From the NCBI GenBank assembly GCA_031310005.1, contig CM062380.1, positions 3,844,001 to 3,908,000 of the forward strand: a stretch of 64,000 nucleotides of DNA. The letters run 5' to 3'. The notes under the pieces were generated by a model. That model was not told the DNA's origin. It worked only from the letters and a program-made list of their open reading frames with translations, and searched no databases. This document shows, one piece after another, positions 31,944 to 57,380 of the stretch (the stretch's first letter is position 1; the number at the start of each line of letters is the position of its first letter). Made by a program: the position numbers and the translations under genes. The DNA comes from Dactylellina haptotyla (Eukaryota; Ascomycota; Orbiliomycetes; Orbiliales; Orbiliaceae).

Positions 31944-34510
31944 CTATCTAGTTGCACCAGAGTTGTTGCTATAGTCCATCGAGGCAGGCGAAGAGTTCTT
32001 AACTTCATTCTTGAGCCTTGATTGCATTGTATTCCTTGTGGGTTGTTGCTTTGCAGGTGGCTCTGGAGATGATAATGCCATCGGTGATGTCCCATAATTA
32101 GTCCAGCTAGATCGATTACTCATTTGCTTTGCTGGGGTAGAGGTAAATGCAGGACTTCGAACAGATGATTTGCTAGAATTCGTAGGGGAAGGTGTGCTTT
32201 GGAATGGATTAGCATTGGCCTGCTGAACAAATGGAAGTGTCCGAGGGGGTGCTCGGATTGGCGAGTCCTCCTGCATCCATGAGTGATCATCATCGTCATC
32301 TTGGAAACTATCTTCGTCTAGAGGCGTCCCACCACGGGCTAGACGACTGCGGAAATCGGCTGCTTCGCCGAGAATGGTGACGTTGGGATTGATTTCAACC
32401 CCGCGACGAGGAACCGCCGGAGTTCCAAATGGGTCGAAGCCAATCTTCTTCTTCGCTGCTGCCCTCTCCTTTCTTCTGCTCTTTTCATTGCTGTACGTAT
32501 CGGACAAGAACAAGTTGAGGAGTTCATCATGCACGAACAAATGTGAGGTTTGTTGATAGTTCTGGAGCCCAGTGAGCCGTAAGAGACATTCAAGAAGGGA
32601 TAAAGATGATAACTTTGGATTTGCAAGGCCGGGTATTCCACGTTGATACCCTCCTGAAGGTGGCTCTGCAACTGTACCTGGCTTCCTGACTGATACAGCC
32701 GTGCTAGTCGCGCTCTTCGGTTGGGGAGTAGGTTTTCCACGTAGCATAGTTGAAAATCCTGGGATCAGGGAGGCTATACTATAGGAAGGTGTTTCCTGAC
32801 GACTGTCTTTACCATCAGATGTAACCGATTCCTCATCTTCATCATCTTCGTCATCATCGTCGTCGTCAATAGGCTCCTGCCAAAACTCGAATGCCAGCCA
32901 CTCTTTATCGAGATGGTCTGGAAAGTTCCATTTGGTTGGATCTGATTCTGGGTGATGAGATGTATTGTAATCCAGAAGGCTTTGGTTAAGCTGAGCGGAG
33001 GGGCCCTCGGTGTCGGAATAATCATCGTCATCTCGCTCATACCTGCTGATTCTGTCTAACAGACGACGCGGAGGCTCTGCGAGAGGATTCCGCTTGAGCA
33101 ATAGAATCGGAGTGACCGAGTCAATGCCGAGCAACTTCCCGGAGTTTGTGTAAAATATTTTTGAGATCTGAGGCATGTGGTTAGCATAATGTGCGAGGGC
33201 ATGAAATGATTGGAGTTGGCGTCTCTACCTGATGTATTGGGACGCTCATTCTCCGTCCAGCACTGGGGACGTCGTCATAAGGTTCTCCATCATATTCGTG
33301 TACGCGACCATCATCCAAATCCTCGATGATACGAAGCTCATAGGCATATTCGTCCGCCTTTTCTGCTCCTCGCATATAATTTCCTGCCGGACCAGCGGCA
33401 CCAAGGTCATTATCAGCTTCACTACCGCCGTAATGCAGCGGTACCCTTAAGATCTTAACCCTGCATTTATGTGCGACTTCCTGCCAGGTAAATTCATCCA
33501 TCTTGGTGCCAGTACGATGCGAATGTCCTGTGAATAATTGATACAGTGTCAATGTAAACACGGTTCCAATTTGCCGCTCTTGAAATGGGTTCTGCATATA
33601 TAACTGATCCGCGACTGTCAAGATGGTGGATGCCTGTAAAAGACGGGATGGTGAGACCCCCTGAGGCATTGTAGTTGATAGAGAAGCTCCAGAGGCTGTA
33701 ACGGACAGCGATATAAGTGGCACAGCCTACAGCAAGTATGTTAGTAGAGTCGGAGGGCCGCGGTATATAATCCTTACATCTTCTATTCGCTTTGTTAAGT
33801 CCCTGATCTCTGCTATGATCATCTTGGCGGTATCTTTGTCGTGTTGGCTCTTTCTTTTTGTTCCCTTTTGTTTTTCTTCTGTTTCTGCGGCGTTCGAAAT
33901 TCTCAGTCCGAGATTCTCGATATCATCTCTCAGGCTTTTGGTTAAAGCCATCGCTGACTCAAGGGAAGTGTTTCCACGAGCTGCCCTAACTTGATTGTTA
34001 GCTTGGACTGATTTCCAAGGGGGCACTACGAGGCCCTCACAATATTTCTACTAGGTCTATCGCCGGTGATACGATCTATAACATCGGTTATATTAGCATT
34101 GGTGCTAAGAGATGAGCTTGAACCACTGGTTTTCTGACCTTGATCTTCGTATCTAGCCGGTCCTTTAACATCATTATTTCTGAGCGCTCGCTTCCTCTGA
34201 TAACCTATAAGCTCTTGTTTAGAGGAGCCAGCAATATGACCATGAGGTATGACCAACTAACGCGTATGTACCGAGTGCATTGTCCGATAGCGAAGCTGCT
34301 CGCAACGCCTATGCCGGAGCTGCCCACCGGGAGTATTAGATCGAGGGACCATTAGGATCGTAAGATAGCGACTGGTGTAAGTTGTACCGTATGGCAAATG
34401 TGACCGTCTGGGACACGATCTAAAAAATCGCCGGGGTATGTTAGCAGCTTGAGCTTCACATGCTTTGGTGGTTTTAGTTTGTTACCCACTTTCGCAAGGA
34501 GATCGTCCAT
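31944..34510 (-). CDS. YRB30: Ran-binding protein of the Yrb30 family
   Basis: Eight exons join with matching phases: 34510-34490, 34419-34388, 34319-34272, 34196-34139, 34075-34041, 33985-33778, 33726-33229 and 33167-31944, giving about 707 residues. The N-terminus reads MDDLLAKIVSQTVTFAIRSG, then ..KIKIVSPAIDLVEIL and AARGNTSLESAMALTKSLRD, then VPLISLSVTASGASLS with SPSRLLQAS. Together these match the fungal Ran-binding (Yrb30) domain, which binds Ran-GTP and inhibits Ran-GAP action in nuclear transport. The C-terminal third is acidic (a D/E-run) and Ser/Pro-rich, and looks disordered; it is longer than in the 440-residue yeast protein. The five 5' exons are only 21-58 nt. The 34197-34271 intron is the least certain join. 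Introns are 51-75 nt, several with clear CTAAC branch sites. Confidence 0.85.
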
Positions 34511-35063: not shown

Positions 35064-36755
35064 TCAGTTAAGTTGATCTTGCGAAGCAACTTTGCTCCTA
35101 AGGGGAACTCTATCCTTCGTATCTGCGACATTTGGCGCCGCATCTTGTTGAATCATGAGGTCGTGAGCGGCGTCCAGGATGCCTGGCTCAAATACATTCT
35201 TGTACTTCGCCTTAGGGTCTGCGAACAACTTGTTGGTTGCATCCGCGTACTCGCCCCAGCGGAACATGAAATTTCGGAATCTGACGAGGTCGGTTTCGTT
35301 ACCCAGATAGATTCCGTTGAGTGCGAACTTCCAGAGCCTGCGGATCCAGATATACTCGTTCTTGTACATCATGCCGCATCGTTTCTCTCCCACAGCGCGG
35401 TCGAACTTGGCCTTGATGGCGAGCTCGTCAGGGTTGAGGCGAAAGTCGAAACGACCAGCGGGGAGCTCGTCGGAGTCGCCATACCATTCCTCCCAGGCAG
35501 GAACATGGCCAGCGGTGGGACCACCTAGTTCCCAAAGCCAGGCACAAGGACTAGATCGAAGGACCTCGGGGAGAAAAGTGGTGTCATCCCAATCGATAAC
35601 GCCTTCAATTTCGAAGGTGAGGTTGTCAGGGCGGCGACAGGAGGCACCAATGATGATATTGCGTGCGTAAAAGTCCGGATGGTGCAGGGCAATGTTTTCT
35701 CTACAATTCTTGTCGAAGAAGCCGCGTGCTCTCATGGCGTCGAGAACATCGGAAAGCATTTTAAAACAGTACACATAGGCTTGATTGACATAGGGGTGGG
35801 TGCTTTTGTTGCTACCACGGCCTTCTGCCCAACAATGGAACATTCGTTTCATGAGGGTGTGTGGGTGGTTGCTGTATTGAACCGTGTACTTATTGTTACG
35901 ACCGATAACGAAGTTCGCGATGATGACGCTGAAATTGCGAGGTTTTTCCTCCTGAAAGCCGAATTTGATGGGGATACCGTTCTCGGCGCCTTTCAACGGA
36001 CCCGTTACGTCGCTTTTGACTTGATCGAATCCTAGGAGCATCTGTGCCACAAGGATGGCAACTCGTTCCTTCTGTTTCTGAGTCAGTGCTGGATAAATTT
36101 CCTCGAGGCGGATTCCGGAGATACGCTGAAGAAGCATGTATGGAACACAGACTGTGTTGTTCGAGGTCGAGTCGTAGGCTAAAACGTTAGGGACTTTGAG
36201 CCCACGAGCGTTGAGGATCGTGAGAATAGCGTAGTTGTCAAGAATATCTGGGTCTTCGCGTCCTTTGATTGGCCATCTTGAAGCGCGAAAGACGGCTCTA
36301 ACCTCAGAATCCTCAGGTCGAGCATTGAACCCAAGCTTGCCATTGACTTTGAATTTCTTTCCCGCAGGCCAATCGAGGCTAATGGACGCGGTTCGATTGT
36401 TGCCACCACCTTTCATTCTACCAACCCTATCGATGCTAACATCGCGAGGGACAATGCCAGCTAGAAGCTTAAATAGTTTTGGCTGGTACTTTTGGAATGA
36501 TTCTTGGTTGTAGTAGTTGGTGGATGTCATCGAGGCAGTGTCACTTGGGAAGAGGTCGGCTTCCGTGATTTCTTTCTCGTCGGTTGGCTCGACTGCCGTG
36601 AGCCAAGCGGTTATCATTTGATAGTCATCGACTGGCGGAGCGTTATCGACCCAAGCCTTCGAGACTTTGTATTGTTTGGTGCGGTCATCGAGGGAACTGT
36701 CTTCCATGACTATGTCGTTGCTAGAGTTAGAGCCTTCAACTGGATTTGAGGCCAT
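35064..36755 (-). CDS. aminoglycoside-phosphotransferase (APH) family kinase-like protein
   Basis: A single exon of 563 residues. The start is taken at 36755 (MASNPVEGSN) rather than the upstream in-frame ATG at 36806, because the upstream codons are compositionally unlike the rest and include a UTR-like stretch. The catalytic loop HHPDFYARN (H358, D361, N366) and the metal-binding DWDD (D388) fit the APH/choline-kinase fold. Fungal genomes carry many such proteins; most have no proven substrate and are not antibiotic-resistance genes. There is no signal peptide, so it is presumably cytosolic. A pyrimidine-rich tract on the coding strand (36791-36840) lies just upstream of the start. It is transcribed toward YRB30. 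Confidence 0.88.
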   Translation of the reverse strand: MASNPVEGSNSSNDIVMEDSSLDDRTKQYKVSKAWVDNAPPVDDYQMITAWLTAVEPTDEKEITEADLFPSDTASMTSTNYYNQESFQKYQPKLFKLLAGIVPRDVSIDRVGRMKGGGNNRTASISLDWPAGKKFKVNGKLGFNARPEDSEVRAVFRASRWPIKGREDPDILDNYAILTILNARGLKVPNVLAYDSTSNNTVCVPYMLLQRISGIRLEEIYPALTQKQKERVAILVAQMLLGFDQVKSDVTGPLKGAENGIPIKFGFQEEKPRNFSVIIANFVIGRNNKYTVQYSNHPHTLMKRMFHCWAEGRGSNKSTHPYVNQAYVYCFKMLSDVLDAMRARGFFDKNCRENIALHHPDFYARNIIIGASCRRPDNLTFEIEGVIDWDDTTFLPEVLRSSPCAWLWELGGPTAGHVPAWEEWYGDSDELPAGRFDFRLNPDELAIKAKFDRAVGEKRCGMMYKNEYIWIRRLWKFALNGIYLGNETDLVRFRNFMFRWGEYADATNKLFADPKAKYKNVFEPGILDAAHDLMIQQDAAPNVADTKDRVPLRSKVASQDQLN

Positions 36756-38307
36756 GATGAAGGTGTTGCGATATTGAATAAGGAAATATTTGAGAGAGAG
36801 AGACAAAGAAGGAGAGGGAGGAAGGGGAGGGAAAGAAGATATGGCCAGAAAATGAACTCGTCGAATGACAAGAGAACGGTACGTATAATATTCCTAAGGT
36901 AGCAACTATAATACAGGCTACGTGGGAACCGCTCGTAAGTGAAGTCAAGTATCTTGGTCCATACCTCTCTGTGTCGAAGTCTATCGGAGCGCATATACTG
37001 CTTGCTATAGGCTACTCTCATAGGCCCCAGTTCACGCGATCTCATAGGCCTAGCTCCTAGAACAAAGCTATAGAGACATTCCTCTGTTATCAATCTAAGC
37101 TTATCCCACTGCTACTCTTTGATTTATCTGACTCAAAGAGAAGACTGGCCTGATATTTTTATAAGAGGCGATCGCGATCGCCGCATTTATAGAGTAAGCT
37201 ATGATTATATGACAAGCTGACTCTACGAGTCTGCCTCTGGGTTCTCTCTATATCTTAATTTCAAGTGATGAATTACGCTTCCCTGGTAGGTTCTGCCATG
37301 GCCACGGTGTGTTTATACAGGGCAGATATCTATTTATTTTACAGAAGGGCGTATATACGTGCATTGAGATTGCTGCTCTGGCTTTAGTGGCGATAATCGC
37401 TGCCGAAATTAGGCGCGACGACGAAACGACGTTGCTGTGAGTTCTCGCAGAAACTAACAGGCGGAATGCACTGTGTTGCAGATAACTCTTGCTAAACTAA
37501 TCAAGCTGGTTTAACTCGGTCGGCACCACGACTTTGTCTAGGTACAAGACTGCTGGTTTAACTATCTGGTGCGAACTATTGCGTGACCGGAGATCTTAGA
37601 AGCGCAAGGCTTAAGATAGATAAAGTCTACAGACTTATCGTTACGAATTTGTTGGATTATCCATTCAATTCCACCATGTGCATTCCAACAAAATCACAGA
37701 ATCGGGGATTAAGCTCACTAGTTCGAGCTTGTGAACCAGGCTGCCATTTTAACAAATAGCGTTATCGTAATAAAGTGGTATTCGATGATTGGGTCTTAGG
37801 ATTCTCTTATCTCGGGAAGCTCGAGTCGATCCTGTTGATGTTTAACTGAAACCATGTCAATGGCTTGCCTAGAGCACACCCGTACAAAGTGGTTCTCTGA
37901 GTTGGCTAATCGGGTCGCTTTTGGTGTTCGCGACTCCCTGTTGCGATATCACCATCCGAGTTTAAACTTTACATCGGGTTAAAATCTGGAGCGCGTGCAT
38001 ATGCATGGAACGTCGGAATTTCGACTATACGAGGGCTTCCTTAACTATAGTTGCGATATCAACGTCTATACACCCCCGATGTGTTCCGATGTGTATAAAA
38101 GGGTGGCTATTACCCTCGAAGTTAATGCGATATTGACTATCAAAGCGCAAGCTTAAATCATATCACTGTCTAAACCCAAAGACTCTCTTCATCTAACCAT
38201 CCTCATAGCAATCTAAAAGTCTAAAACCTCGACTTTATCCAGCTATATAACATCATATCTTTACCCTATACTATCCAGAGATCTCAAACTACGTACATTT
38301 ACCAAAC
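36756..38307. other. intergenic region between the APH-like gene and the secreted peptide gene
   Basis: A divergent promoter region: the APH-like gene reads left and the peptide gene reads right. It holds the purine-rich tract (36791-36840) and a 16-bp perfect palindrome at 37167-37182. A minus-strand frame overlapping the APH 5' end (36710-37093) shows no recognisable family. Otherwise nothing assignable was seen. Confidence 0.5.
38094..38101 (+). promoter_or_regulatory. TATA box of the secreted peptide gene
   Basis: TATAAAAG occurs about 214 bp before the ATG at 38308 and is the best TATA match in this spacer. The intervening DNA is A/C/T-rich with no upstream ATG-rich frames. This arrangement fits a strongly regulated fungal gene with a leader of about 150-180 nt. 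It is inferred from position and sequence only. Confidence 0.5.
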
Positions 38308-38730
38308 ATGAAGGTTTCTACACTCTCAGTTGTTTTACTATCGGCCAGCACAATGGCCGCAGCTTTACCAGTTGCTACCGACCCGATTATATCTCCCTGT
38401 CTGCCTGATATACCTACCGGAAATCCTAAGGTACTACCGCCCTCTAGCAAACCACTTGAAGAATTTCTAGGAACAAGCTCCTAACGATCGAAACCTTAGG
38501 AACCCCCGTTCTTCCGGGTTGGAGAGGTACAAAAGCGACAGGTACCTTCCATGGACTTTATGAACCCCGGCGAACCTTTTATGAATGTACGAAACACTCT
38601 CTTAACAGATAATCCGCAGCAATTTAAAAGTGGGCTTCGAGTCAAGCTAACATCGATTTAGAGATTTTTGAATAATGTCAGTAGTTGGTTTGAGAAGATG
38701 ACCTCATTCTTTGGAGGGGGAGTTCCTTAG
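38308..38730 (+). CDS. small secreted peptide precursor with Kex2 site and amphipathic C-terminal helix
   Basis: Three exons, 38308-38430, 38500-38586 and 38662-38730, join in phase 0 to give 92 residues. The introns are 69 and 75 nt, GTAC donors with CTAAC branch sites and TTAG acceptors. Residues 1-19 form a signal peptide (hydrophobic core LSVVLLSASTMAAA). A single dibasic site, QKR at 52-54, would let Kex2 release a 38-residue peptide (55-92) beginning with Gln, which could cyclise. Residues 71-87 have hydrophobic positions F72, L73, V76, W79, F80, M83, F86 and F87 with polar residues between, the pattern of an amphipathic helix, ending in Gly-Gly-Gly. The only cysteine (C31) is in the propeptide. 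No family was recognised. It may be a secreted signal, effector or membrane-active peptide; function is unproven. Confidence 0.75.
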
Positions 38731-39891
38731 TTTCTGGAGGTTCAGAGGGAACCTTTTATTTAAATTATATATGCTATGAGAATGTTATTTGGTTGTGTCA
38801 AGTTATTTTTTCGTGTCTGGCGTCGGCTGGCTGGGCGCGGGATTTCGTATTTTTCTTGTTCTTTCTTTTTTTGATTAATATATATACGACATCGGTTGGC
38901 CGTAGTGTAGTTTATGAAGGATAAAATGGGCGGTGAGCCAATATACACATTATTTCGAAGCAAATTCATTTATTTAAGCGAAAAGCTCGGATCCTGGTGT
39001 AGTCTTCGTAGACATTAATATTAGCTGATCATATATATTTATATTTCTGAGGATTGTTAGAGAACTAGTACTAGTTTAAAGCGCGTGGAGGAACATGAGG
39101 GAGTACTCGATCTCCAAACGTGAAAATTTAAACCTTTGTATGTAATAAGTTGGGTCATAGTAACGAAAAAGAAGGCTGGGTGGTTTGGGAGACAAAGGCT
39201 GGATAGATTGGGTTCTCGAAGGGGCTGTGAGTTTCTAACTTCGTCCGCTGAGCTTAGCTTGGGTTGGTTGATATTCTAACATGAAGCTTCAGGGAAATTA
39301 ATCCAACATCCAACACTCAGACTTAGAACAAGCTTCGTAGGCAAACACGCCGTCACATCGTTTATTAATAATCTGGTGTAGTATTAATTCGCTTCTGTTA
39401 GTATATCTGATCAGATGGCATGTTTTGGTTTGGTCATCTGTGCAATTGGCGGATTGTACTCGAGTACTCGAGTTGGCCGCGGTGCTGTGGCACGATTGCT
39501 ACGTGATCTAGCTTGGCGCAATAATTATGAGACGCCAGTTTGTACTCCATCTGGTGTGTTCCTGCATCATGTTGGCATTGAGCAAAGTTCTATACATAGG
39601 AACCCCGACCAACAGTTTCATCTGTTTTGTTGTTTTAACACCTCTACGAGTATTCGATAAAATTTGTCGTGCGGCAATGCTTTTTGGAGCTATGAGCAAC
39701 TTCGAGAATGTAACTGCCGATTCATAAAACTGTGTGATTTTCTTGTAGCGATAGACATATAGTCTCTATTTATCCTACGAGCTCATATTCGACCTTGTTA
39801 CCCTAATTTTACTTACTATTATTAAAAAAATTGAAATTTATGTCCCAGATGATGGATTAGGCTGGGCCGAGCTAATCTACATTAATTCAAG
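38731..39891. other. spacer between the secreted peptide gene and the S28 peptidase
   Basis: The first part is AT-rich and suits the 3' end of the peptide gene. A 16-bp perfect palindrome lies at 39458-39473. An 81-codon plus-strand frame at 39415-39660 resembles no family. The last 200 bp should hold the peptidase promoter, but no clear TATA box was identified. Confidence 0.5.
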
Positions 39892-42173
39892 ATGACAGAC
39901 TGTAGACACTCTGCGAAGGCGACGGTCAGCTGGTACATCTTGACTATCGCGTGTTACTTGATATCGATATCCTCGGTGGTAGACGCCCGGATGGGGACTA
40001 ATCGAATAGGAGGTCTGAGTTTAAGACTTGCAAAGGAGAAACAACAAAAGAACAAAGGGATTAGCGGCCACGCGTCTGTTAAAATTGTAAATGGAACGCC
40101 AGTAACTACTATGAATGCTATCAACAGTATACGGAATATTACAGAGCATTCAATCGAGGTATGTCGAACTAGCATCTGAGTCTGGCTAGCCATTACTAGA
40201 TCATAACTACGAGTCGTTCAACCCGGATACTAGGTAACTGACTACTTGCTATTTTAAGATACCAGTAGACCATCACGGATCAATAAATGAAACCTATCCT
40301 AATCGTTATTGGACTTCCGAGCAACATTATGCCACAGGAGGGCCTATATTCCTGTACGATTGCGCCGAGACGGACGCCTCCGATATGTTTTCTTACGCAC
40401 TGGAAGGGGACTTGATGCAGACATTGATGAAGGAGTTTGGGGGACTAGGTATTGTGTGGGAGCACAGATATTACGGCAAGTCGAAGCCTAAGAGTATATA
40501 TCCAGATATTACCGTCAATACGCCGGTGGAAGCCTTTCAATTCTTGGATACAGAGCAATCTCTTTTGGATATCCAATATTTTGCAAACAGATTTAAGAGC
40601 GAAAGATTCCCGAAGGATGATGTAACACCCAAAGGGAGTGCGTGGGTATTCTTGGGGTGTTCATACGGAGGAGTACGGTAAGTCTTGCGGGCCACAGTTT
40701 CGAAAAACGGACGTCTGAGTTCCAGGTACTAATGAGATTGTGTTCCGTATAGCGGGAGTCTTATGCGACAGAAATATCCGGAGACGATATTCGCGAGCTT
40801 TTCCTCTAGTGCGCCTGTAGAAGCTCAGTTGGAGATGACTGGATATTTCGAGCAGATCTATAGATCGGCATCCAAAGAGGACCCTGCGTGTCTGAGAAAT
40901 ATCCACTCGGCAATAACATATATTGACGAGGAGCTCGAGAAAGGAGGGAATTCTAGCGATACTATAAAGAATCTATTTCTCGGTCCGGGTGGAGCGGCCA
41001 ACGATAATGGTAGGTTTGCAGAGTTGCTCACGGCTCAGCTTTTGTTCTATCCAGTTGTTGGTATGCGGGACAGTGTGAACCCGGACCACGACTTCTCCCT
41101 CTCCAACTTATGCGATTGGTTGAATAATGATAATGGTGAAATCTCGCCGTCGGAGGGCTGGGAAGAATCGGGACGGAAGGATGGGAAATGGATCGCTACC
41201 AAGTGGGCTCAATATGATAGCTGGCAAGATCTAATAGTATGGTTTACGGGCGCCTATTGCGGTGGGTATAAAGCCAACCTAGCACCAAGCGCTCCAGGTT
41301 GGGATTGCGAATTGAACAAAAGATTTGGGAAGCCCGATGATATCGCCTGGCAGTGGCAAATCTGTTCCGAATGGGGGTACGGCCAAGTTGCTAACGTTGG
41401 ACCGAATCAAATATCATCCAAGTTCAACAATGCTGAATATTTCAAGTATACGTGTGACCGCCAGTTTCCAAACGCCACGGAATCGGGAAAACTCCCAAAG
41501 TTCCCGCTGGTGAAGAAGATCAACGATATATATGGGGGTTGGCTCCGACCACAAGCCCGGACATTCTATACCTACGGTGAAAGCGATTCTTGGAGCGTCC
41601 TAGGCTTCTTTTCTAACGAGACTGGGGCTCCTGGCAATGTTGTGAGCCACGAAATCCCAGGGCCCGAGACCAAGAATAGGGGAAATAGGGTCTTTGGGTA
41701 TGCCTTGGACCGGGGGGTTCATTGCCAAGACTTCTCGGGTGGTCCCCAATCGAAAGAATCAATTCAACTTTTCTCCCAGGCGCTGCGAAGCTGGCTCCCG
41801 TATTTTGTCCCGGCGAATAAGAGCGGTGGAAAGGATGGTGGAGATAAAGATGGGAGAGGAGGTCAGAAAAAGGATGGAAAAGGTGACCAAAGTAGAGACG
41901 AAAAGACGCAACAACCAGGTAAGTTTCAATAATTTGGGGTAATATATATATCTTGAAAGTATTTTGAGATTATAATGCTAAATGATTTCGCAAGCGATAG
42001 GGATCGTGAGTCCGAGTATTCCGCACTTGAACTCGACGGCAAAGACATCGAATTTCACGCTGAGTGGCCCCCGCAAGAAGCTCAACGAGACAGTGCCACG
42101 GGAGCTGCTGAGGACCATGAGGGAACTCAAGGATGTCAAGCTGCAGCGACGGATGAAGGAGTGGGCTGCGTAG
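39892..42173 (+). CDS. secreted serine carboxypeptidase, family S28 (prolyl peptidase type)
   Basis: Four exons, 39892-40158, 40259-40677, 40753-41918 and 42001-42173, join in phase and encode 674 residues. The first 32 residues form a signal peptide (core ILTIACYLISISSVV). The domain starts near IPVDHHGS..YPNRYW. GCSYGG carries the nucleophile S224; D507 (TYGESDSW) and H552 (DRGVHCQDF) complete the likely triad. S28 enzymes cleave at proline residues and act outside the cell or in acidic compartments. Several N-x-S/T sites fit a glycoprotein. Beyond the catalytic domain lies a Gly/Lys/Asp-rich linker (about 585-617) and a basic tail encoded mostly by the last exon and ending ..RRMKEWAA, which is unusual for the family. 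The last intron (41919-42000) retains an in-frame stop soon after its donor, so intron retention would give a protein lacking the tail. Confidence 0.9.
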
Positions 42174-42718: not shown

Positions 42719-44161
42719 ATGGCTACCAAAGCTGTTATCTTGGTATGGAGGGCCCACTCGCTTCTAGCTCGGCTTCGGAGGGTTTAAGCTAACCGCGGTG
42801 TTCGATGATAGGTCGGAGGCTCGCAGCGAGGAACTAGATTCAGACCCCTTTCTCTCGATCTACCGAAGGTCCGTGCTTCCTTGGTTGCCATCTATCTGGC
42901 GGGGCGTGCCTCGAGCTCTATTAACTCCCCCTCTTTCGCTCCCCGTAGCCCCTCTTTGAGGTTGCCGGCCACCCAATTATCTGGCACTGTCTGGCTGCCC
43001 TTACGAAAATCGAGGTCAAGGAGGTTCTTGTGATCGGTTACTATGATGAATACATTTTCCGCGACTTCATCAGGGACTCTTCCAAGGAGTTCCCTCAGTT
43101 CACAATCAAATACCTCCGTGAATACGAGCCATTGGGAACTGCTGGCGGTCTCTACCACTTCCGTGATAACATCTTGAAAGGTGCACCGAAGAGGTTCTTC
43201 GTCTTGAACGCGGATGTCTGTTGCTCCTTCCCACTCAAGGAAATGCTCCAGCTTTCCGATGACCGTGAAGCGGACGCCGTCATTTTGGGCACAAGGGTGT
43301 CCAACGAAGCTGCCTCCAGCTTTGGTTGCATCGTCTCCGATCCCTCCACGAAGCGTGTTCTCCATTACGTTGAGAAGCCCGAGTCCCACATTAGCAATTT
43401 AATAAACTGCGGTGTCTACTTGTTCGACACTTCCGTCATCTCCAGAATCAACAGGGCCCGAGTTATTAAGAATGAACGCAAGCAAACTGATCCTCTCTAC
43501 GACCCAAGCGATGACACTGGCTCCGCCGACGTACTCCGCCTCGAACAGGACATTCTCGGTGCTCTCGCGGACGACAAGAGCTTCTACGTCTATGAGACCC
43601 GCGACTTCTGGCGCCAGATCAAGACTGCGGGCTCGGCCGTCCCAGCGAACGCGTTATACCTCCAGAAAGCACACCAATCCGGATCCGAAGACCTCGCCGC
43701 AGCGAGCTTGAACATCATCCCTCCTGTCTATATCCATCCAACCGCTAAAGTTGACCCAACTGCCAAGCTGGGACCGAATGTCTCTATCGGTCCCCGCGCG
43801 ACTGTTGGGCCCGGCGCCCGTGTCAAGGAGTCCATTGTCCTTGAGGACGCCGAGATTAAGCACGATGCCTGCGTTCTCTACAGCATTGTTGGTTGGAACG
43901 CGAAAATCGGCGCCTGGGCTAGAGTTGAGGGCACTCCCATTTCTGTCACACAACACTCCACCACCGTGCTCAAGAACGGTGTCAAAGTCCAGTCGGTAAC
44001 AATCTTGGCGAAAGACTGCATTGTCCAGGATGAAATCAGGGTACAAAACTGCGTATGCCTGCCGTATAAAGAATTGAAGAGGGTAAGTCTGAATCGTAAG
44101 AAAATTCTCATCTATAGTGCTAACTGGTTTACAGGATGTTTCGAACGAGGTCATCATGTAA
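42719..44161 (+). CDS. GMPPA: mannose-1-phosphate guanylyltransferase alpha subunit (GMPPA type)
   Basis: Four exons, 42719-42742, 42812-42868, 42949-44082 and 44135-44161, join in phase to give 413 residues, the usual size for the family. The N-terminal nucleotidyltransferase domain begins MATKAVILVGG with GTRFRPL at 15-21 and PKPLFEVAG; later come LREYEPLGTAGG and VLNADVCCSF. The C-terminus is a left-handed beta-helix with hexapeptide repeats (IHPTAKVDPTAKLGPNVSIG). The GGSQRGTRFRPL motif, and not the GGYGTRLRPL of the catalytic beta subunit, marks it as the alpha (regulatory) type, related to fission-yeast Mpg2. It works in the cytosol in GDP-mannose supply for protein glycosylation and cell-wall mannan. 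The first exon has only eight codons and the last eight plus stop. Confidence 0.9.
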
Positions 44162-44401
44162 ATTGCCTCTGTTATATGTAATGTGTAGATTAATCTGTTC
44201 GAAATCACGCAAAAGTACCTATCATGATATCACTACCCGCCGCTGTTACCCTCTGACTGGAAATAAAGGAAGCTTTTCGTATGAACTACCGCATTGCGAA
44301 TACTGAAATAACTATGATGGTATATACTAAACTGAGCCTCTTTGTCCTAAAATTTGATACCTTGACACTGCAAATTAAACTTACAAACGAAAAACATACA
44401 C

Positions 44402-45562
44402 CTACTGCCCACTCGGACTCCATCTGACCGCATCTCCCACTCTATCAGCCGTCAGCCCACCCCTTCCGGGATCCCTGTACCCTCGCTCCAGTTGTCTTTC
44501 GTAACTAATCTTCCTCAATCTCTCCGTCTCCCGCGGTGTCAGTGCCAAATAAACCTCCACCCCGACTAGATGCACCATGATCGCGACCCATGCCGCCATA
44601 CCAAAGCTCAACTTGAACCCGACAGCAACCTCCTCCGCCATCCCATCCGCCAATCCCTGGACAGCCACATGCCCGTCAACAGTCTCCCCATTTAATCCCA
44701 CACAAGCCGGGTACATCTGTCTGAACATATTCGGGTCTTGATACCCAAACTCAACCTCCTTACACTCCACCACGGTCCAATAGCTCTTCTGCGCATTGAC
44801 CACAATCGAACCAACCAGCAGAATAATCCGCATGGTAATAATCATCCCTAGATAAAACATCGCGCGTAACATCCACTTCCTATGCTGCTCGATCTGTAAC
44901 CGTTTGATATTGTAATACGCTAGCGAAATGCTCGTGGTAACCATGATCACCATCGTTCCCACGGCCGCCTGCGTTTCCACGCCGCCCCCGAACGCCCGGC
45001 GCGCGATCATTAACGCGCCGACATTACTGATCATGACGAGGATTATGATGATGTATCCGTTTATACGGTGCAGGAGGAGCAGTTTATACCGAATCACGGG
45101 GACGAATTGGAATACCATGAGGAGACCGGCGGGGAGGACAGTGGAAAGGTGCAGGGTGATTCCGATCCGGTAGATGGAGAATTGGGAGTACCAGTATCGT
45201 TCGGAGGGGAGGATATTGTTGAAGAAGGAAGAGGAGGCGGTGCCGGAGATGTTGAGGTATGGGAGGCGGGCGAGGGTGAAGCCGAACATTGCACCGGCGA
45301 ATATTACGACTGTGATTTATAAATTTTGGTTAGCATTGGAGCCGTTGGTGAGTTGCGAAGAGAGGGTTTTACATAGAGAGAAATTGTAGCCTTTTCGAAA
45401 GCCTATTGGATGGTACACTTTGCGTGCATAGTAGACGAGTCTGTTGGGTGAATCGAATCCTGATTCTTCAACCCGGGAAGTCGAGATGGCCTTTTGAGAG
45501 GAAGCCCCTTCGTCTGTACCGCTGCCATCGCTGTACACTTCCTGGAGATTATGCTGCATCAC
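44402..45562 (-). CDS. DUF2306-type multi-pass membrane protein
   Basis: Two exons, 45562-45373 and 45309-44402, join in phase 1 across a 63-nt intron to give 365 residues. The N-terminal 45 residues are polar (MMQHNLQEVYSDGSGTDEG..). Hydrophobic segments follow: FVIFAGAMFGFTLA, then the stretches around GITLHLSTVLPAG, NGYIIIILVMISNVG, GTMVIMVTTSISLAY, MFYLGMIITMRIILLVG and FGMAAWVAIMVHLVG. LLLLHRINGY and the downstream EQHRKWMLRAM are the conserved His-containing loops of the DUF2306 family. The biochemical role is unknown. Two ATGs are adjacent at 45562 and 45559. The gene is convergent with GMPPA, with only 240 bp between the stops. Confidence 0.82.
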
Positions 45563-47488: not shown

Positions 47489-50400
47489 TTAAGGACTTTC
47501 ATTCCCCCATGCTCTCGTGAATTGATTCACAAGGCTCGTATCACACGTTTGTGTTACGAAATATTCCGAATACTGGTTTCTTGTCAAATAATGATTGCCG
47601 CTTGCGTCGGTTATATCTAGAGCAAAAGAGCCACCCGAATCGCCATCGGCAAACATGATACGGATAGGCGTATATGTCCCAGCGGCCAACGTTATATTCC
47701 ATGAACCGGATGCCGGGGGGCTCGAGGTTGTGGCCATTCTTACCGTGAAATTCGCATTAGTAGTCTCATAGGCTGTGTAGGCGTTCGTACCCGTCCATAT
47801 CCAGGCTGCATTATGAACATCGCTGAAAGCGAAGGTATATGTTGAGCTGACTGGTGAGTAGAAGAACCCACGGTACATAATGGTCATTACATAACCGTTT
47901 GTGATAAGGCCCTGTGGACTGTTGCAAGGATAAGCGCAGCCAAGACTGGTATTATTCAACGGAGTGTTATTGGGCGTTGTCTTGTAACGAGAGGCTGTAT
48001 AGCCCGGTAGCACTTGAGTTCCAGAATTCATTGGCCTGCAAGGTGCGATGTAGGCCTGCAAACCGACGTTGCCACAAGAAATGTCCGGCTTGGGTTTAAC
48101 AGCGTATGCGGGGAAATCCGGCTTACTGCCGCCACAATCTTTCCTGACCAAATGCCGCGTCATAATGTTCTCTTGGACGTAATAAATCCCATTGGAATCT
48201 GTAACTGTCAAGACCCACTTAGTGAAACCACCGGTATTTGAGTACAAGATCCTGATAGGTAAATATGTCCCAGCCGTGAGAGTGACGCTATAGGTGTAAA
48301 TGAGACCACCGATCCCGGACCTGGCACGTAAGACACTATTCAAAAAGGTCCAACCAGTATAAGCTAAGTCTCCCACCCAAAGGTCGAAAGCATAATTAGC
48401 GTCGCTGGAGGTCGAGAAAGTGTAGGTAGCGTTATATGGTGCGTAAAAGAAGCCTTGAATATTTAAAGTGTAGGGCTTAGGCGCAGGACGGTTGTAATAG
48501 GGATACGGGAGTGGGTCGAATTTCTTAAATTGCCAGTCTGAATACGGAATGTAAGTTGTAGTGTCATACCTCCATCCTACATACGCGGCTGGTCGGCTGT
48601 TGGTTGACGCTGCTACTGCCTTGACTACATCTGTACTTATTGGGTTTTGAAGATCATAGAGCGCAATGTCTACTCCTAGATTGTCGCAGCTATCATCTGG
48701 CTTCGGAAGTTCTGACCCAAAGGGTGGGAATGACCTCAAGTTGCCTTCGCAATTATCCGTCACCAGATACGGGGAGTCTACTCCTTTGCTGACGTAGCTC
48801 ACACCATCGGCGCCAACGATAGTGAAAGTAAATTGCGCTACATTTCCTCCGTTATGGAATACCAATCTGAATGGGAGATACGTGCCAGCTTCTAACGTTA
48901 TAGAGGGCGAGTTCGGCTTACCTCCCGGATCGGAGTCTCCAGTTGCGTTTTTGGCTTCCCAGCTACTATAGGCGTTGTCACCCAACCAAAGTAGTGCACG
49001 GTTGTCCACATTGAGGAGGTTGAACGTGTACTGCTGGGTTTTGGGAGCATAGAAATACCCGCGATGGTTTAAGAAATAAACGCTTCCTATAGGACGAGCA
49101 GTATAGACAAATGGACCGGTGAGGCCGTAAGGATTTTGCGATCCGGGGTTACCCGCAAAATTGGTGTTACTGCCAGTCCAATAGAGACCAAGAGCGCTAA
49201 ATTGACCAGTAGAGGATGGCGGATTAACACCAACCCATTCAAACGAGGTGGTTTGAATACCAACGCTGGTAGCTGGGTTGAGAAATTCACTGTGGTAAAT
49301 TGCAACTTCCATGCCAGCGTTGCCGCAAGAGTTTGGAAGCGCTGCTGGTGTGGCGTAAACTATTACGGAAACGGTGCCGGTAATGGCGGAGGGAGTAACG
49401 GTAGTTGTAAAGCCAGTGGACGTGCCCGTAACATGTCGGGTGATTGTCGTAGAGGCTTGCGTGATATAATTGATGACAGTGGCGGTGCCGCTAATATCGG
49501 TAGGTACGGGGAAAACTGTTGTCAGGCCTGGAGCACCTGGAGTCGACACACTAGTGACGGTTGTAAACGGTGGTACACTGACTTGGATAACAGTAGCTGG
49601 TTCCGATCCGTCATCGATGGTCGATCCTGCGCTATTTGTTGGATAGACTGTGGACGTATAAGCGCTAGGCCCGACTTCCATAACTGTGGTAAGTGGTTGG
49701 TCAATGAATTCAATAACGGTAGCGGGGCTGTCCAAATCTGTCGAATCAGGATAGGCCGTGCTTTTTCCTAGCCTGCTTCCGACTCTCGTTATCGAAGTAG
49801 TTGAGGAGGGTTCTTCAATATCGATAATCTCGATTGGGTCTGACACATCCGAAGGCACAACAGTGGAGGTCAAAGCTGAACTTCCCACTCGTCTCACAGT
49901 GGTAACAGATCGAGGAGGGTAGGTGATTATTGTGGCTGGTTCGTTCGGATCATTAGGTGCGATCGTGGTGGCAGATGCTACCGTACCTGTGTTCGTACCA
50001 ACGACTGTAGTATAAACCCTGCTAACGAAAGTGATCACCTCGATTGGAGATGTAAAATCGTCGGTCGGGTCAGGTGTTATGGTAGTCGCGGAAGCGCCAC
50101 CAGTAGCGGCGCTGGTAATTGTAGTTGTACGCCTTCCAGCAAAAGTAATAATGGTGGCTGGTTCTGAGGGATCAGTTGGGAAGATAGTCGTGGCTGAAGG
50201 CCCACCAGGGCCAGCTGCACTGGTAAGTGTAGTAGAGGTTGTGGGCGCTGCGAAGGTAATAACTGTAGCTACTTGAGAAGGATCTGCCGGGAAAATGGTA
50301 GTAGCGGAAGGACCACCAATGCCAGCCGCGCTGGTAAGAGTTGTGAAGGAATAAGTAGCCGTGGCGAAGGTTATAACCTCGACCGCAGATTCGTATGGCG

Positions 50401-53400
50401 CGTCACTGGCTGGGAAGATGGTAGTGGCAGAAGGCCCACCATATTCGTCTGCCAAGCTTGTGATGGTAGTGGTTAGCCTGTTCGCGAAAGTAATAACAGT
50501 GGCAGGCTGGGAAATGTCCGTTGGCAAGATCGTAGTAGCAGATGGTCCACGGACGCCAGCAACGCTTGTGAGTGTTTTCGACGATGTCGGGGTTGCGAAT
50601 GTGATAACCTCAACTGGCGAAGCGAAGGGCGCATCGGTGGCAGGAATAACGGTGGAAGCAGACGGTGCGCCAGTCGCAACGCTTGTGATAGTTGTCGTAG
50701 ACCTGCCTGCGAAAGTAATAATTGTAGCTGGTTGAGAGGGGTCTACCGGGAAGATTGTAGTCGCGGAAGGTCCACCAGGGCCAGCTGCACTAGTAAGTGT
50801 GGTAGAGGTAGTAGGGGTCGCGAATGTGATAACTGTAGCTAGTTGAGAAGGATCTGCAGGGAAGATAGTAGTGGCGGAAGGTCCGCCAATACCCGCCCCA
50901 GAGGTAATTGTGGTAAACGAATATATAGCAGTGGCAAAAGTAATAATTTCAACGGGGGATTCGTATGGCGCATCGCTAGCGGGGAAAACTGTACTAGCTG
51001 AGGGACCACCCGAACCTGCCCGACTTGTGATCGTAGTTGTGAGTCTGTTCGCAAAAGTAATGATAGTGGCAGGTTGGCTAGGATCACTTGGGAAGACAGT
51101 GGTAGCCGATGGTCCGCCAGTTCCAGCGGCACTGGTGATTGTCTTGGAGGTGGTAGGCGTAGCAAACGTGATAATGGTAGCCGGCTGGTTAGGATTACTT
51201 GGAAAGACTGTGGTGGCCGATGGTCCGCCAGTTCCAGCGGCACTGGTGATTGTCGTAGAGGTAGTAGGAGTCGCAAACGTGATGACAGTGGCTGGTTCAG
51301 AAGGGTTGGCTGGGAAGATAGTAGTAGCAGATGCAACACCGCTACCAGCTGCACTAGTGATAGTAGTGAACGAGTAGATAACAGTGGCATAAGTGATAAC
51401 CTGAACTGGTGAAGTATAAGGGTCGTCACTAGCTGGGAAGACTGTTGAAGCAGACGGCCCACTGCTTCCTGCTAAACTCGTAATTGTTGTTGTAAGCCTG
51501 TTTGCAAAGTCAATGATGGTTGCTGGTTGTGCTGGGTTGGTTGGAAAGATTGTGGTAGCCGATGGTCCGCCAGTTCCAGCGGCACTAGTGATTGTAGTCG
51601 AGGTGGTAGGCGTAGCAAATGTGATGACAGTTGCTGGTTCAGAAGGGTTTGCTGGAAAGATAGTAGTAGCAGACGCCACATCGTTACCAGCTGCACTAGT
51701 GATAGTTGTGAACGAGTATATAACAGTGGCATAAGTGATAACCTGAACTGGAGAAGCATAAGGATCATCACTAGCGGGGAAGATTGTTGAGGCAGACGGC
51801 CCACTGCTCCCTGCTAAACTCGTAATTGTTGTTGTAAGCCTGTTTGCAAAGGTAACGACAGTTGCTGGCTGTGCTGGATCAGTTGGGAAGATGGTGGTAG
51901 CTGATGGCCCAGCGCCGCCAGCTACGCTAGTCAGAGTTGTGGAAGTAGTAGGAGTGGCGAACGTAATGACAGTCGCAGGGTCGGACGGATCTGCAGGGAA
52001 AATAGTCGTAGCCGATGGTCCACCAATTCCAGCAGCACTGGTGAGAGTTGTAAAGGAATAAACAACCGTGGCATATGTGATAACTTCGATCGGTGAGCTA
52101 AACGGCGCATCAGTGCCTGGATAAACGGTTGTGGCGGACGGACCACCAGTCCCTGCTAGACTGGTGATTGTGGTGATCCGCCTATTAGCATACGTGATGA
52201 TGGTGACTGGTTGAGATGGGTCTGTAGGAACGATAGTTGTAGCGGAGGGAATACCGGTAACGGGGCTTGTGATCGTGATAGTAGGGAGTCTGGTGACAAA
52301 CTGGATAACAGTGAAGTCTCCAGTGGAATCTGCAGGTGCGACAGTCGTGGCGGATTGTCCACCATTTCCAACGATTGGACTCGTCACAGTAACCAATGGT
52401 CTGAGATCCAGAATAGTGAATGTTCCATCTGGGTCGACCGGAGTAACCGTCGTTCGAGAGGCAGACGCTCCAGAGAAGGGACTTGTGGCGACTGTAGCCG
52501 GTCTAAATTTGATCACAGAGATGGCACCTGTTGAATCGGTTGGGAATTCTGTGGCAATAGAGGTACTACCCCCAAGCGCTACCCTAGGGACGGTAGTGAT
52601 GGGCCGGAAATCTACTACCAAGTACGTGCCACTCGGATCACTTGGTGTGATAGTTGTCTGCGATGCTATCGTACCGCTGTAAGCGCTCGTAACGCTGGTA
52701 ACCGGTCTGAATTCAATGACGGAAATTGCGCCAGTTGGATCATCCGTAGCTGGGAAAATAGTAGTTGCACTTGCACCTGCACCGCCGTTCCCAGTTACTG
52801 GGCTCACAGCCGTAACCACAGGGCGGAGGTCGATGATGGTATAAGTTCCGCTGGGGTCACTTGGCGTAATAGTTGTTTTAGAAGCGACGCTACCAGGATA
52901 CGAACTGGTCAGTGTTGCGACAGGTCTGAATTCGATAACAGAAATCGGACCAGTGGGATCATTAGTGGCAGGGAATACAGTAGTCGCAGTTGCGCCACCT
53001 GCTCCCGTTATTGGGCTGATGGCGGTTACAACAGGTCGTAAATCTATAACGGTGTAGGTTCCGCTGGGTTCAGATGGAGTAACTGTGGTATAAGAGGCGA
53101 CCGTGCCTGAGTAGGAACTTGTGATTTTCACCACAGGCCGAAACTGAATGACTGAGATAGGTCCGCTCGGATCAGTTGCTGCAGGATACTCGGTAGTAGC
53201 AGTTGCACCATTTGCGCCGCTGATAGGGCTTAGCACTGTGATGACTGGTCGCAGATCAATTACAGTGAATGTTCCACTAGGATCAGCTGGAGTAATAGTA
53301 GTTTGAGAAGCAACGGTACCAGTATACGAGCTCGTGATTTTCGCGATAGGTCTGAACTCAATAACCACGATTGGCCCGCTAGAGTCAGTTGCTGCTGGAT

Positions 53401-56400
53401 ATTTGGTGGTAGCAGTTGCTCCACCAGCTCCGGTGATAGGTTCAAGGCTTGTAGCAACTGGTCTAAAGTCAATAACTGAGAACGTTCCACCAGGATCCAA
53501 AGGACTGATGGTGGTCTGCGAAGCAGTTGTACCGGAGTACGAGCTGAAGACTTTAGTAAGTGGTCTAAATTGGATGACTGAGATTGGGCCAGCGGTATCA
53601 GTTGCCGCTGGGAAGAGGGTGGTCGCAGTTACTCCAGCATCCCCAGAGATGGGACTGGCAATTGTGACTACAGGTCTGAAATCTATAACTGAATATGTTC
53701 CACTTGGATCGGCAGGAGTAATCGTTGTTTGAGAAGCGACCGTACCCGAATATGAGCTTGTGACTTTGATAACAGGCCTGAACTCAATTATCGATATTGG
53801 ACCAGTGGCGTCAGTTGGGAAGGCCGTAGTGGCAGTTGCTCCACCAGACCCAGTTATTGGGCTGAGAACGGTGACCACAGGTCTCAAGTCAATAACTGTA
53901 TACGTTCCACTGGGATCGGACGGAGTGATGGTCGTTTGAGAAGCGATCGTACCAGGATATGAGCTTGTGACTTTGATAACTGGTCGGAACTCGATGACCG
54001 AAATAGGGCCAGTGGCATCAGCCGGGAAGGCTGTAGTAGCAGTTGCTCCACCAGGCCCAGTTATTGGACTGAGAACGGTGACCACAGGTCTTAAGTCAAT
54101 AATTGTATACGTTCCGCTGGGATCAGATGGAGTGATAGTCGTTTGAGAAGCAACAGTACCAGAATAAGAACTGGTGATACTGGTAACTGGCCGGAACTCG
54201 ATGACCGAAATCGGGCCAATGGCGTCCGTTGGGAAAATGGTGGTGGCAGTTGCACTACCAGAGCCGGTATTTGGACTGATGCTGGTAACAAGAGGGCGCA
54301 GATCGATAACGGTAAATGTTTCGCTAGGATTAGATGGGGTAATAGTGGTTTTCGACGCCACCGAGCCAGTGTAACCCCTGGTAATGCTCTCAACTGGTCT
54401 AAATTTGATGACCGAAATTGGACCGGTAGCATCAGTTGGGAAAATAGTGCTGGCAGGGGCACCGCCAGCGCCAGTGTTTGGCCTGATATCAGTAGTAACA
54501 GGTCTGAAATCAATAATCGAGAAGATTCCACTGCTGGGATCAGAAGGAGTTACGGTAGATCTCGACGCGACTGTGCCGCTATAGCCGCTGAAAACAGTGG
54601 TAGCTTGCCTAAACTGGATTATAGAGATCGGTCCTGTGGTATCGGTGGCAGCTGGAAAGATGGTAGTAGCGGTCGCTCCATCAGAACCGCTGATAGGACT
54701 GAACAGTGTAGTGGCTGGTCTGAAATCGATTACCGAGAATGGGGCAGTCACATCAGTAGGAGTAACTGTTGTCTGCGACGCAACAGATCCACTATATGCA
54801 CTGTAGACGCTAGTAGCTGGTCTATAGTAGATATTGGTAATAAAGCCAGTGGAGTCTCTTGGGAAAGCTATCGATGCGGAAGCACCGTCAGTCGCGAGAA
54901 CGTAAATTGAAGTAGCGCCTCTGTAGTCGAATATTGTAAACCCTTCAGACGCACCAGTAGGGCTGGCTGTGGATCTACCCGTCCTGGTTCCAGTCCGCGA
55001 AAGGAAAACAGTGGTAACGGACCGATAGTCGATGACGGTAATGGGCCCTGTTGCATCAGTCGCAGGGAGTGTTGAGACAGTCGGGGTTATTCCAATGGCG
55101 GGCTTGGTCACTGAAACAATAGTGGGGGAAACAATGGCACTAGTTATATACTGGACAACAGTGATAGTACCACTTGGATCTTGTGGGAGCACTGTCTGCG
55201 TTGACGGGCCCGCCGATGCTTGAGAAGTAACGGTAGTAAATGGACCTGTGATATAAACGACGACACTCTTGGGTTGCGAACCATCAAGAACTGTATTGCC
55301 GGCGCTATCAGTTGGGTAGCTGGTTACTGATGAAACCTGGCCACCATCGGCAAGCCTCACCAAAGTCGTTGCTGGTATTGAGACGTAAGTGCTGATAGTA
55401 AACGGTTGGCCAGGGGCTGCTGGAAAGACGATAGTGGCTGACGCAACTCCAGTAGCTGGTGCAGTGACAGTAACAAATGGTCCAGTAGCGAATGTGATAA
55501 CAGTAGCTGGCTGTGAGCCGTCATAGACAGTCCCACCGTTACTGTTAGTTGGGAACACTGTCGACGCTGATGCCGCACCGGTTGCCAAGCTAATGACGGT
55601 AGTCTTGCTAAACGAGACATAGGTGCTGACTGTGATTGGCTGCCCGGCTTGGGCTGGCAGAATAGTGGCGGCAGAAGCGGCACCAATTGCAGGGGCGGTG
55701 ACAGTAACAAAGGGTCCAGTAACAAAAGTGACAACAGTAGCTTGCTGTGAGCCGTCGTAAACCGTCCCACCGTTACTGTCAGTTGGATACTCCGTCGACG
55801 CTGATGCCGCACCAGTTGCTAAACTAACAATAGTAGTCTTGCTAAACGAGACATAAGTGCTGATTGTGATTGGTTGACCGGCTTGGGCTGGGAGGATGGT
55901 GGCAGCAGAAGTAGCGCCAGTCGCAGGGGCGGTGACAGTAACAAAAGGTCCGGTAACAAAAGTGATAAATGTCTCTGAGCTTGAGCCATCAAGCACGGTA
56001 TGTCCGTTGCTATCTGTGGGATAAACGGTCGATGCTGATGCCGCACCGGTTGCCAAGCTAATCACAGTCGTCCGGCTGAGCGAGACATACTTACTGACTG
56101 TGATTGGTTGACCGGCTTTCGTAGGGAGAATAGTCTTGGCAGATGCGGTGCCAATCGCAGTTACGGTGACAAAGGGGCCAGTGATATAAGTAACCACAAT
56201 CTTGGGTTTTGAGCCGTCAACAATTGTATGCCCGCTGCTATCGGTTGGGAAGATGGTTGAGGCGGAAGCACTTCCCGTCGCTAAGCTGATACGCGTGGAG
56301 ACTGGCAAAGTCACATAGGCGATGACGGTAGCCACGCCATTACCCCCACTGCCTGGCTGGGCCGTCGTCCGGCGGGGATTTGATCCGACCACCTCAGTGA

Positions 56401-57380
56401 TGGTTGTAGTCGTGGTAGCGCCGCCACTGACATATTTGGTGACAGTTGACGTAACAGTCTTCGTTATGGTCTTATTGATGACACTTGTGGATGTGGTGGT
56501 GATGTTCGTGGTCTTAACCCCGTGGGACGTCTTTGCTCGTTTGATCGTTTTGGTAGTATACTTCGTCGTCTTCGCAGTTGCGACTGTTTTAGTGACAATG
56601 TATTTTTGGGTGGTGGTCTTTTGCACGAAGCCGGTGGGAACATTGATAGTCTTTGTTTTGCAGGCAGGTGTTTTGGTGGTGAGTTGGGTCTTGGTGGTGA
56701 AGCAGGCTACAATAAACAACACATCGTTACCACAAATGCCACAACATATATCTTGACACAGTCTCGTAACTAGACTTGCACTCTGAACTTACAACAGGAT
56801 TTGGGAATACTGTCCCCATAGAGGGCTCGCCGGATGTCGCGGATATGATTTCCACCCGGAGGTGTTCCAATGACAGTCGTGGTTTTGGTGACGGTTGTAG
56901 TTTTAGTATGCCAGCTTGGTGTAACGCGTGCTTATTAGCATCCGAACCCGAGACCAAAAGTGGTAGCCCGATAGCTTGGATTGAGGAGGAAACTTACCTA
57001 GTACGCTTGGCAACAGTTGCCTTCAAATTGGTCTGGGTAGCCCATCGGGTCTTAGTTGACCACTTTGTAACAGTCTTACGAGGGAGAGTGATGGTATTGC
57101 AGGAAGTGTGAACAGTTTTTGTCGAGGTAGATGTTGCTTCGTGGGTACAAGTAGATTTGCCTTTCTTGACGTACTTGATTGTCGTCGGCGTAGCCTTGAG
57201 CACAGTACTGGTGCAAGTCGATAATTGGATGCCCTGGCTCTTGAAATACTTTGAGCAGGATACGGATGACTGACCCGCATTATAGTTGCCCTTACAGCTT
57301 GCCGCTGCAGGCTTGCAGGAACCCGCGGCGACAGTGCTTATAAGAAGCACTGCCTGTAAGGCTGCCTGGATAAACAGCAT
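47489..57380 (-). CDS. giant secreted repeat adhesin with three C-terminal PA14/GLEYA-like modules
   Basis: Three exons, 57380-56998, 56914-56793 and 56706-47489, join in phase to give about 3,240 residues; the last exon alone is 9.2 kb. Residues 1-19 are a signal peptide (LFIQAALQAVLLISTVAA). A short Cys-rich module follows (CKPAAASCKGNY..CSKYF), then a Thr/Lys-rich stalk. Residues from about 300 to 2620 are Ser/Thr-rich repeats of at least three kinds: TGPFVTVTAPATG-type (about 300-630), GPISVIEFRPV/SQTTITPSDPSGTY-type (about 760-1570), and GGPSATTIFPADPS/ATVITFA-type (about 1630-2400). Three related modules end the protein, near 2628-2840, 2840-3040 and 3040-3240. Each has a GYFYAP or GFFY(A/S)P core strand and a GLEYA-like motif (LLWLGDNAYSSW, LWVGDLAYTGW, IWTGTNAYTAY). 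PA14/GLEYA lectin modules bind glycans in fungal adhesins. No GPI-anchor signal is visible at the end (..WGNESP). Binding modules at the C-terminus rather than the N-terminus are unusual. Confidence 0.88.
51231..51914 (-). repeat. two tandem 342-bp near-identical units inside the adhesin
   Basis: The segment 51231-51572 is repeated at 51573-51914 with a constant offset of 342 bp (114 codons). For example, GTTCCAGCGGCACT occurs at 51231 and 51573, and TAATTGTTGTTGTAAGCC at 51481 and 51823. Shorter 37-codon units (offset 111 bp, seen at 51108 and 51219) lie beside them. The high nucleotide identity, compared with other repeats of the protein, indicates recent duplication in frame. Confidence 0.75.

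What the first reader, a model, noticed from the sequence alone, without database searches (positions are those of the whole stretch)
38308..38730. Unrecognised secreted peptide precursor with a single Kex2 site and a strongly amphipathic C-terminal helix
Three short exons, each joined in phase with good branch sites, give a 92-residue precursor: signal peptide, propeptide with one Cys, one KR site, then a 38-residue peptide. Positions 72, 73, 76, 79, 80, 83, 86 and 87 are all hydrophobic with polar residues between, a textbook i/i+3/i+4/i+7 pattern, followed by three glycines. Established knowledge: fungi release pheromones, RiPP-like peptides and membrane-active peptides through Kex2. Nothing in the protein matches a family I know, so it could be a new effector or signalling peptide.
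Basis: partly seen in the sequence, partly recalled or inferred. Interest (0 to 1): 0.75.

Follow-up and report, generated by a model that had tools for sequence, protein, structure and literature searches.

The report
Orphan fungal secreted amphipathic-helix peptide precursor
A nematode-trapping fungus probably has a small one-copy gene for a secreted peptide that the enzyme Kex2 would cut free and that ends in a strikingly two-faced (oily/watery) helix; the gene looks real, but orphan small secreted proteins are common in this fungus and what this one does is unknown.

Summary
Exons 38308-38430, 38500-38586 and 38662-38730 join in phase into 92 residues with a signal-peptide-like start, one KR site and a helix whose eight hydrophobic residues fill one 140-degree arc. 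The full architecture arose in 0 of 435 generated 64-kb windows (thresholds set after seeing the gene). A TATA box and a G-poor leader precede the ATG. The genome is very probably Dactylellina haptotyla YMF1.03409, a nematode-trapping fungus: one contig has exactly the published length. It encodes a kexin. No paralogue was found in it and no relative in the libraries searched, but no other fungal genome was available. Both keep KR and helix. Best reading: an orphan small secreted protein, matured by Kex2 into an interface- or membrane-seeking helical peptide. By the features tested it is not a dikaritin RiPP, alpha-pheromone or Kex2-processed repeat protein. Orphan small secreted proteins are common in this species, so this is a good candidate rather than a surprise. 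Splicing, secretion, cleavage, expression and target are untested.

The parts
38094..38101 (+). TATA box TATAAAAG, 214 bases before the ATG
   Evidence: inferred function
38180..38307 (+). G-poor leader (6.2% G) before the ATG
   Evidence: transcription start not known
38308..38430 (+). exon 1, residues 1-41; residues 1-19 (38308-38364) look like a signal peptide with A-x-A at 17-19
   Evidence: own simple rule, SignalP not available
38431..38499 (+). intron 1, 69 nt, donor AAG|GTACTA (weak), CTAAC 14 nt before the end
38500..38586 (+). exon 2, residues 42-70 (ends at 38541 if donor 38542 is used)
38533..38538 (+). codons of K53-R54, Kex2-type site VQKR|Q
38542..38547 (+). competing in-frame donor CAG|GTACCT, best-scoring donor of 38380-38660; intron would be 120 nt
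38662..38730 (+). exon 3, residues 71-92 and TAG; carries nearly all of the amphipathic helix (residues 70-87)

Best explanation
A real, single-copy gene for an orphan small secreted protein of a nematode-trapping fungus (very probably Dactylellina haptotyla YMF1.03409). The precursor enters the secretory pathway by its signal peptide, the kexin of this genome cuts after K53-R54, and a Gln-starting peptide of 38 residues (or 23, if donor 38542 is used) is secreted. On contact with a lipid or other hydrophobic surface its C-terminal 18-residue stretch folds into an amphipathic helix, so that it works as an interface- or membrane-seeking peptide, either against cells of prey or microbes or as a surface-active coat of the fungal cell. 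Shown: exon arithmetic, excess over chance, a kexin gene, no relative in what was searched. Inferred: splicing, secretion, cleavage, helix formation, membrane or surface action, biological role. My odds: gene real 0.88; Kex2 cleavage given the gene 0.75; interface or membrane activity given both 0.6; together about 0.4.
For: Gene: 1 model in the window, 0 of 435 generated windows with the full architecture; G-poor leader and TATA box. Processing: VQKR site fits the Kex2 preference in PMC8528282; one P-domain match in the genome, in an ORF that also carries the S8 domain. Helix: moment 0.596 / 0.665, reached by 20 and 11 of 20,000 shuffles, all eight hydrophobic residues between 60 and 200 degrees. 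Context: 55 DUF3129 matches and the contig length 7,783,607 place it in D. haptotyla, a species with 695 small secreted proteins.
Against: No transcript, peptide or orthologue evidence could be had. Codon usage is neutral and the intron-1 donor weak. Net charge is -1 (38-mer) or +1 (23-mer), not the strongly cationic charge usual in lytic peptides (the comparison is recalled). The lipid-binding discriminant is 0.95-0.96, only in the 'possible' range (formula and ranges recalled). Chance secreted 3-exon models do arise when any GT is allowed.
Confidence: 0.4

Rival explanations
1. Same gene, but intron 2 starts at 38542 (CAG|GTACCT), alone or as an alternative: a 77-residue precursor whose Kex2 product is the 23-residue helix peptide with net charge +1.
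For: Donor 38542 scores 3.28 bits (82nd percentile of 78 confident donors) against 2.52 (68th) for 38587; it is in phase and keeps SP, KR and helix. Published mean intron length in this species is 108 bp (PMC3828140 Table 1).
Confidence: 0.4
2. Ordinary small secreted protein in which the KR is not used, or only trims a pro-region, and the helix packs against a partner protein; no membrane or surface activity.
For: About 30% of 120 plant-pathogen effectors had a putative Kex2 pro-domain in PMC8528282, so a single site is common; net charge near zero.
Against: The hydrophobic face is unusually clean and there is no Cys after the KR to hold a small fold.
Confidence: 0.3
3. Surface-active structural peptide of the fungal cell wall, working like Ustilago Rep1 repellents.
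For: Similar length of the released peptide (37 residues in Rep1), Kex2 release, amphipathic, near-neutral.
Against: No repeats, single site; no expression or localisation data.
Confidence: 0.15
4. Chance open frame: no gene, or a different gene structure.
For: No transcript or orthologue; neutral codon bias; 1.16 chance 3-exon secreted models per 64 kb when any GT is allowed, 0.36 of them with KR.
Against: 0 of 435 generated windows show the full architecture; leader and TATA box fit.
Confidence: 0.12

Closest known systems
Orphan small secreted proteins of nematode-trapping fungi (PMC3828140, sections 11 and 14)
   Same: Under 300 residues, signal-peptide-like start, no Pfam domain, no paralogue found, same species
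   Different: 15 of the 36 infection-induced ones have at least five Cys; this one has one, in the pro-region
Kex2-processed pro-domain (K2PP) effectors, e.g. SnTox3 (PMC8528282, part 1 of 3)
   Same: Signal peptide, Cys-poor pro-region, one Kex2-type site with aliphatic P4
   Different: KR lies past the middle (53-54 of 92) and the product is a short helical peptide, not a folded domain
Candidalysin from Ece1 (PMC5784256, passages)
   Same: Kex2 release of a short amphipathic helical peptide from a secreted precursor
   Different: Candidalysin is cut on both sides from a 271-residue precursor with several KR sites and trimmed by Kex1; here one site and a natural C-terminus; no sequence relation tested
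Ustilago Rep1 repellent peptides (PMC6339444 and PMC8528282, passages)
   Same: Kex2-released peptides of about 37 residues, amphipathic
   Different: Rep1 is a repeat precursor; here a single peptide

Membership tests
Orphan small secreted protein (SSP) | Under 300 residues with a secretion signal (PMC3828140) | tested here: met
   92 or 77 residues; signal by own simple rule only, SignalP not run
Orphan small secreted protein (SSP) | No Pfam domain and no homologue in other species | tested here: inconclusive
   No Pfam family at E up to 10; no relative in the collections searched, but these hold no other fungal genome
K2PP effector | Kex2 motif after a pro-region | tested here: met
   VQKR, residues 51-54
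K2PP effector | Motif in the first half of the protein (search rule of PMC8528282) | tested here: not met
   KR at 53-54 of 92, or of 77
K2PP effector | Pro-domain shown to be removed by Kex2 | not testable with these tools
   needs mass spectrometry or an in vitro digest
Kex2-processed repeat protein (KEP) | At least three repeated motifs separated by KEX2 sites (PMC6339444) | tested here: not met
   one dibasic site
Ascomycete alpha-pheromone precursor | Repeated peptides, KR followed by XA/XP dipeptides (PMC6339444) | tested here: not met
   one site, followed by QVP or QRF
Dikaritin-type RiPP precursor | Repeated cores with a UstYa/DUF3328 gene nearby | tested here: not met
   no repeats; the 3 UstYa matches lie on C1, C6 and C10, the window on C2
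Candidalysin-like cytolytic peptide | Released by Kex2 cuts on both sides, then Kex1 trimming (PMC5784256) | tested here: not met
   single site; C-terminus is the natural end
Candidalysin-like cytolytic peptide | Amphipathic helix | tested here: met
   20 and 11 of 20,000 shuffles reach the moment
Candidalysin-like cytolytic peptide | Permeabilises membranes | not testable with these tools
   needs a liposome or cell assay

The most novel reading that the evidence does not exclude
A lineage-specific Kex2-released amphipathic helical peptide with which a predatory fungus acts on membranes of its prey, with alternative use of two in-frame donors (38542, 38587) switching between a 23-residue net +1 form and a 38-residue net -1 form of the same helix: one gene, two peptides of opposite net charge.
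Probability: 0.1. Interest if true: 0.72.

Novelty: new member of a known kind. Interest (0 to 1): 0.36.

Why it matters
If the peptide is made and binds membranes or interfaces, it would be a Cys-free, peptide-type candidate among the secreted proteins of nematode-trapping fungi; those I read about in passages (NipA; DUF3129 proteins) are cysteine-rich or domain proteins. RNA-seq, secretome mass spectrometry and a gene deletion would test it directly. As it stands it is one unverified orphan among hundreds.

Tried and rejected
RiPP: rejected, no repeats and no UstYa match on contig C2. Pheromone and KEP: rejected, one site. Paralogue family: none at E up to 10 with the 92-residue or the 38-residue query (six-frame search that scores only its best candidates). 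Relatives elsewhere: genome contigs, 61 pattern matches, 0 confirmed; viral contigs, 13 matches, 0 confirmed; plasmids, no match; PDB, 0; Pfam 0, PHROGs 0, NCBIfam 0. The genome collections hold no fungus beyond the window's own genome, so their silence says little. Codon usage as a gene test: uninformative. A first intron training by strict coding score kept 9 candidates; the EM donor model replaced it, with 38000-39000 left out of training; some of its 78 'confident' donors look like noise. Species by an A. oligospora TEP1 primer with up to 2 mismatches: no match. Fungal lectin family: 1 weak match below cut-off. Literature: 7 answered searches; I saw the listings, cut to 4 of 4, 20 of 36, 20 of 20, 11 of 11, 15 of 373, 10 of 36 and 15 of 1,270 papers; none of those listed is, by title and start of abstract, about this gene or a comparable peptide of a nematode-trapping fungus. 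Supplementary files could not be read, so whether the gene is already annotated is unknown.

Full report
What is there. The window lies at C2:3844001-3908000 of a genome of 39,806,839 bases in 11 contigs. Exons 38308-38430, 38500-38586 and 38662-38730 (+) join in phase 0 into a 92-residue product. The introns are 69 and 75 nt, both divisible by three; intron 1 has an in-frame TAA, intron 2 closes only at the TAG that forms its acceptor. Residues 1-19 look like a signal peptide (own simple rule; SignalP was not available), C31 is the only Cys, KR is 53-54, and the C-terminus has the claimed pattern exactly.

Which organism. Contig C1 has 7,783,607 bases, the number that Table 1 of PMC10580851 gives as the longest sequence of the Dactylellina haptotyla YMF1.03409 assembly (passages). 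The paper's total is 39,557,028 bases in 10 scaffolds, 249,811 fewer than here; I did not test what the difference is. The genome has 55 matches to DUF3129/Egh16 (some genes give two), a family with fewer than 5 members in about 99% of fungal species and more than 20 in several nematode-trapping ones (PMC10662756, passages). An A. oligospora TEP1 primer has no match with up to two mismatches.

Is it a gene. One search covered the window and 200 order-3 Markov windows (both strands) for 3-exon secreted precursors with CTAAC branch motifs: 1 in the window (this gene), 0 in 200. One search used three laxer settings: the window held 1, 1 and 6 models, of which 1, 1 and 1 (this gene) had KR and a comparably amphipathic C-terminus; generated windows with that full architecture were 0 of 150, 0 of 60 and 0 of 25. 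Without the KR and helix terms chance models average 0.007, 0.2 and 1.16 per 64 kb, so at the laxest setting the splice pattern alone proves little. In 195.6 kb of other stretches of the same genome there were 0, 0 and 4 models; of the 4, 2 had KR and 0 the helix. All thresholds were set after seeing the gene. Further support: leader 38180-38307 has 8 G in 128, as low as 0.13% of all windows, and TATAAAAG stands 214 bases before the ATG. Codon usage neither helps nor hurts.

A correction to the gene model. An EM donor model (148 effective introns from about 249 kb, 38000-39000 excluded) scores the donors at 38431, 38527, 38542 and 38587 at 0.66, 0.96, 3.28 and 2.52 bits. Its intron would be 120 nt, longer than the commonest class (60-79 nt) but near the published mean of 108 bp (PMC3828140 Table 1). 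It gives a 77-residue precursor and a 23-residue Kex2 product of net charge +1, against 38 residues and -1. Donor 38527 would remove the KR site (72 residues) but is weak. All three forms keep signal peptide and helix; intron-2 retention would lose the helix.

The helix. The best 18-residue stretch of the whole protein is residues 70-87, moment 0.596 (Eisenberg) and 0.665 (Fauchere-Pliska); 20 and 11 of 20,000 same-composition shuffles reach it, and 3 and 0 of 5,000 shuffles of the whole 38-mer hold any such window. On the wheel F86, W79, F72, M83, V76, F87, F80 and L73 occupy 60-200 degrees with no polar residue between. All but N70 is encoded by exon 3. The lipid-binding discriminant (formula and ranges recalled) is 0.96 and 0.95 for the two forms, in the 'possible' range.

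Processing. The site is V-Q-K-R|Q: P1 Arg, P2 Lys and aliphatic P4, as Kex2 prefers (PMC8528282, part 1 of 3). The genome has one match to the proprotein-convertase P domain, in an ORF that also carries the S8 domain, so a kexin gene is present. Cleavage itself is inferred.

What it is not. One dibasic site rules out Kex2-processed repeat proteins (three repeats at least) and the repeat type of alpha-pheromone precursor (PMC6339444, passages). The 3 UstYa matches lie on other contigs. Neighbours identified are a Ran-binding protein (31947-33726, -), an APH-type kinase (35067-36893, -), an S28 peptidase (40238-41929, +), a GMPP-type nucleotidyltransferase (42949-44178, +), a DUF2306 protein (44405-45316, -) and a GLEYA ORF of 3,099 residues (47492-56788, -); I see no logic that links them to this gene.

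Relatives. None found: own genome, PDB, Pfam, PHROGs and NCBIfam, prokaryote, viral and plasmid collections. No other fungal genome was available, so 'orphan' means only this. It would be unremarkable: PMC3828140 reports 695 small secreted proteins in this species, 181 of them in homology clusters of three or more (section 14), and 36 among the 117 most induced and expressed infection genes (section 11). Whether this gene is one of them could not be looked up.

Mechanism. I commit to a Kex2-matured, interface- or membrane-seeking helical peptide (about 0.4 for the whole chain). Shown: exon arithmetic, excess over chance, a kexin gene. Inferred: splicing, secretion, cleavage, helix on a surface, role. 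Whether it meets prey, microbes or the fungus's own surface cannot be told; the near-neutral charge speaks somewhat against a classical cationic lytic peptide and leaves a repellent-like surface role open.

Verdict. Observation confirmed with one correction (donor choice); interpretation partly supported; new member of a known kind.

Noticed in passing
window 47492-56788 (-): Open frame of 3,099 residues with three GLEYA stretches and PA14 matches: a very long adhesin-like protein in a nematode-trapping fungus, with long antisense frames in its body.
   Followed up: no
window 38527, 38542, 38587: Three GTAC donors in exon 2, all in phase 0, so that donor choice would remove the KR site or shorten the peptide without a frameshift.
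   Followed up: partly
own genome, 55 places listed: Large expansion of the DUF3129/Egh16 family; several matches contain stops or are partial.
   Followed up: no
own genome C1:6153432-6153986, C10:2581764-2582075, C6:1480367-1480621 (all -): Three UstYa (DUF3328) matches, candidate dikaritin-type RiPP loci elsewhere in this genome.
   Followed up: no
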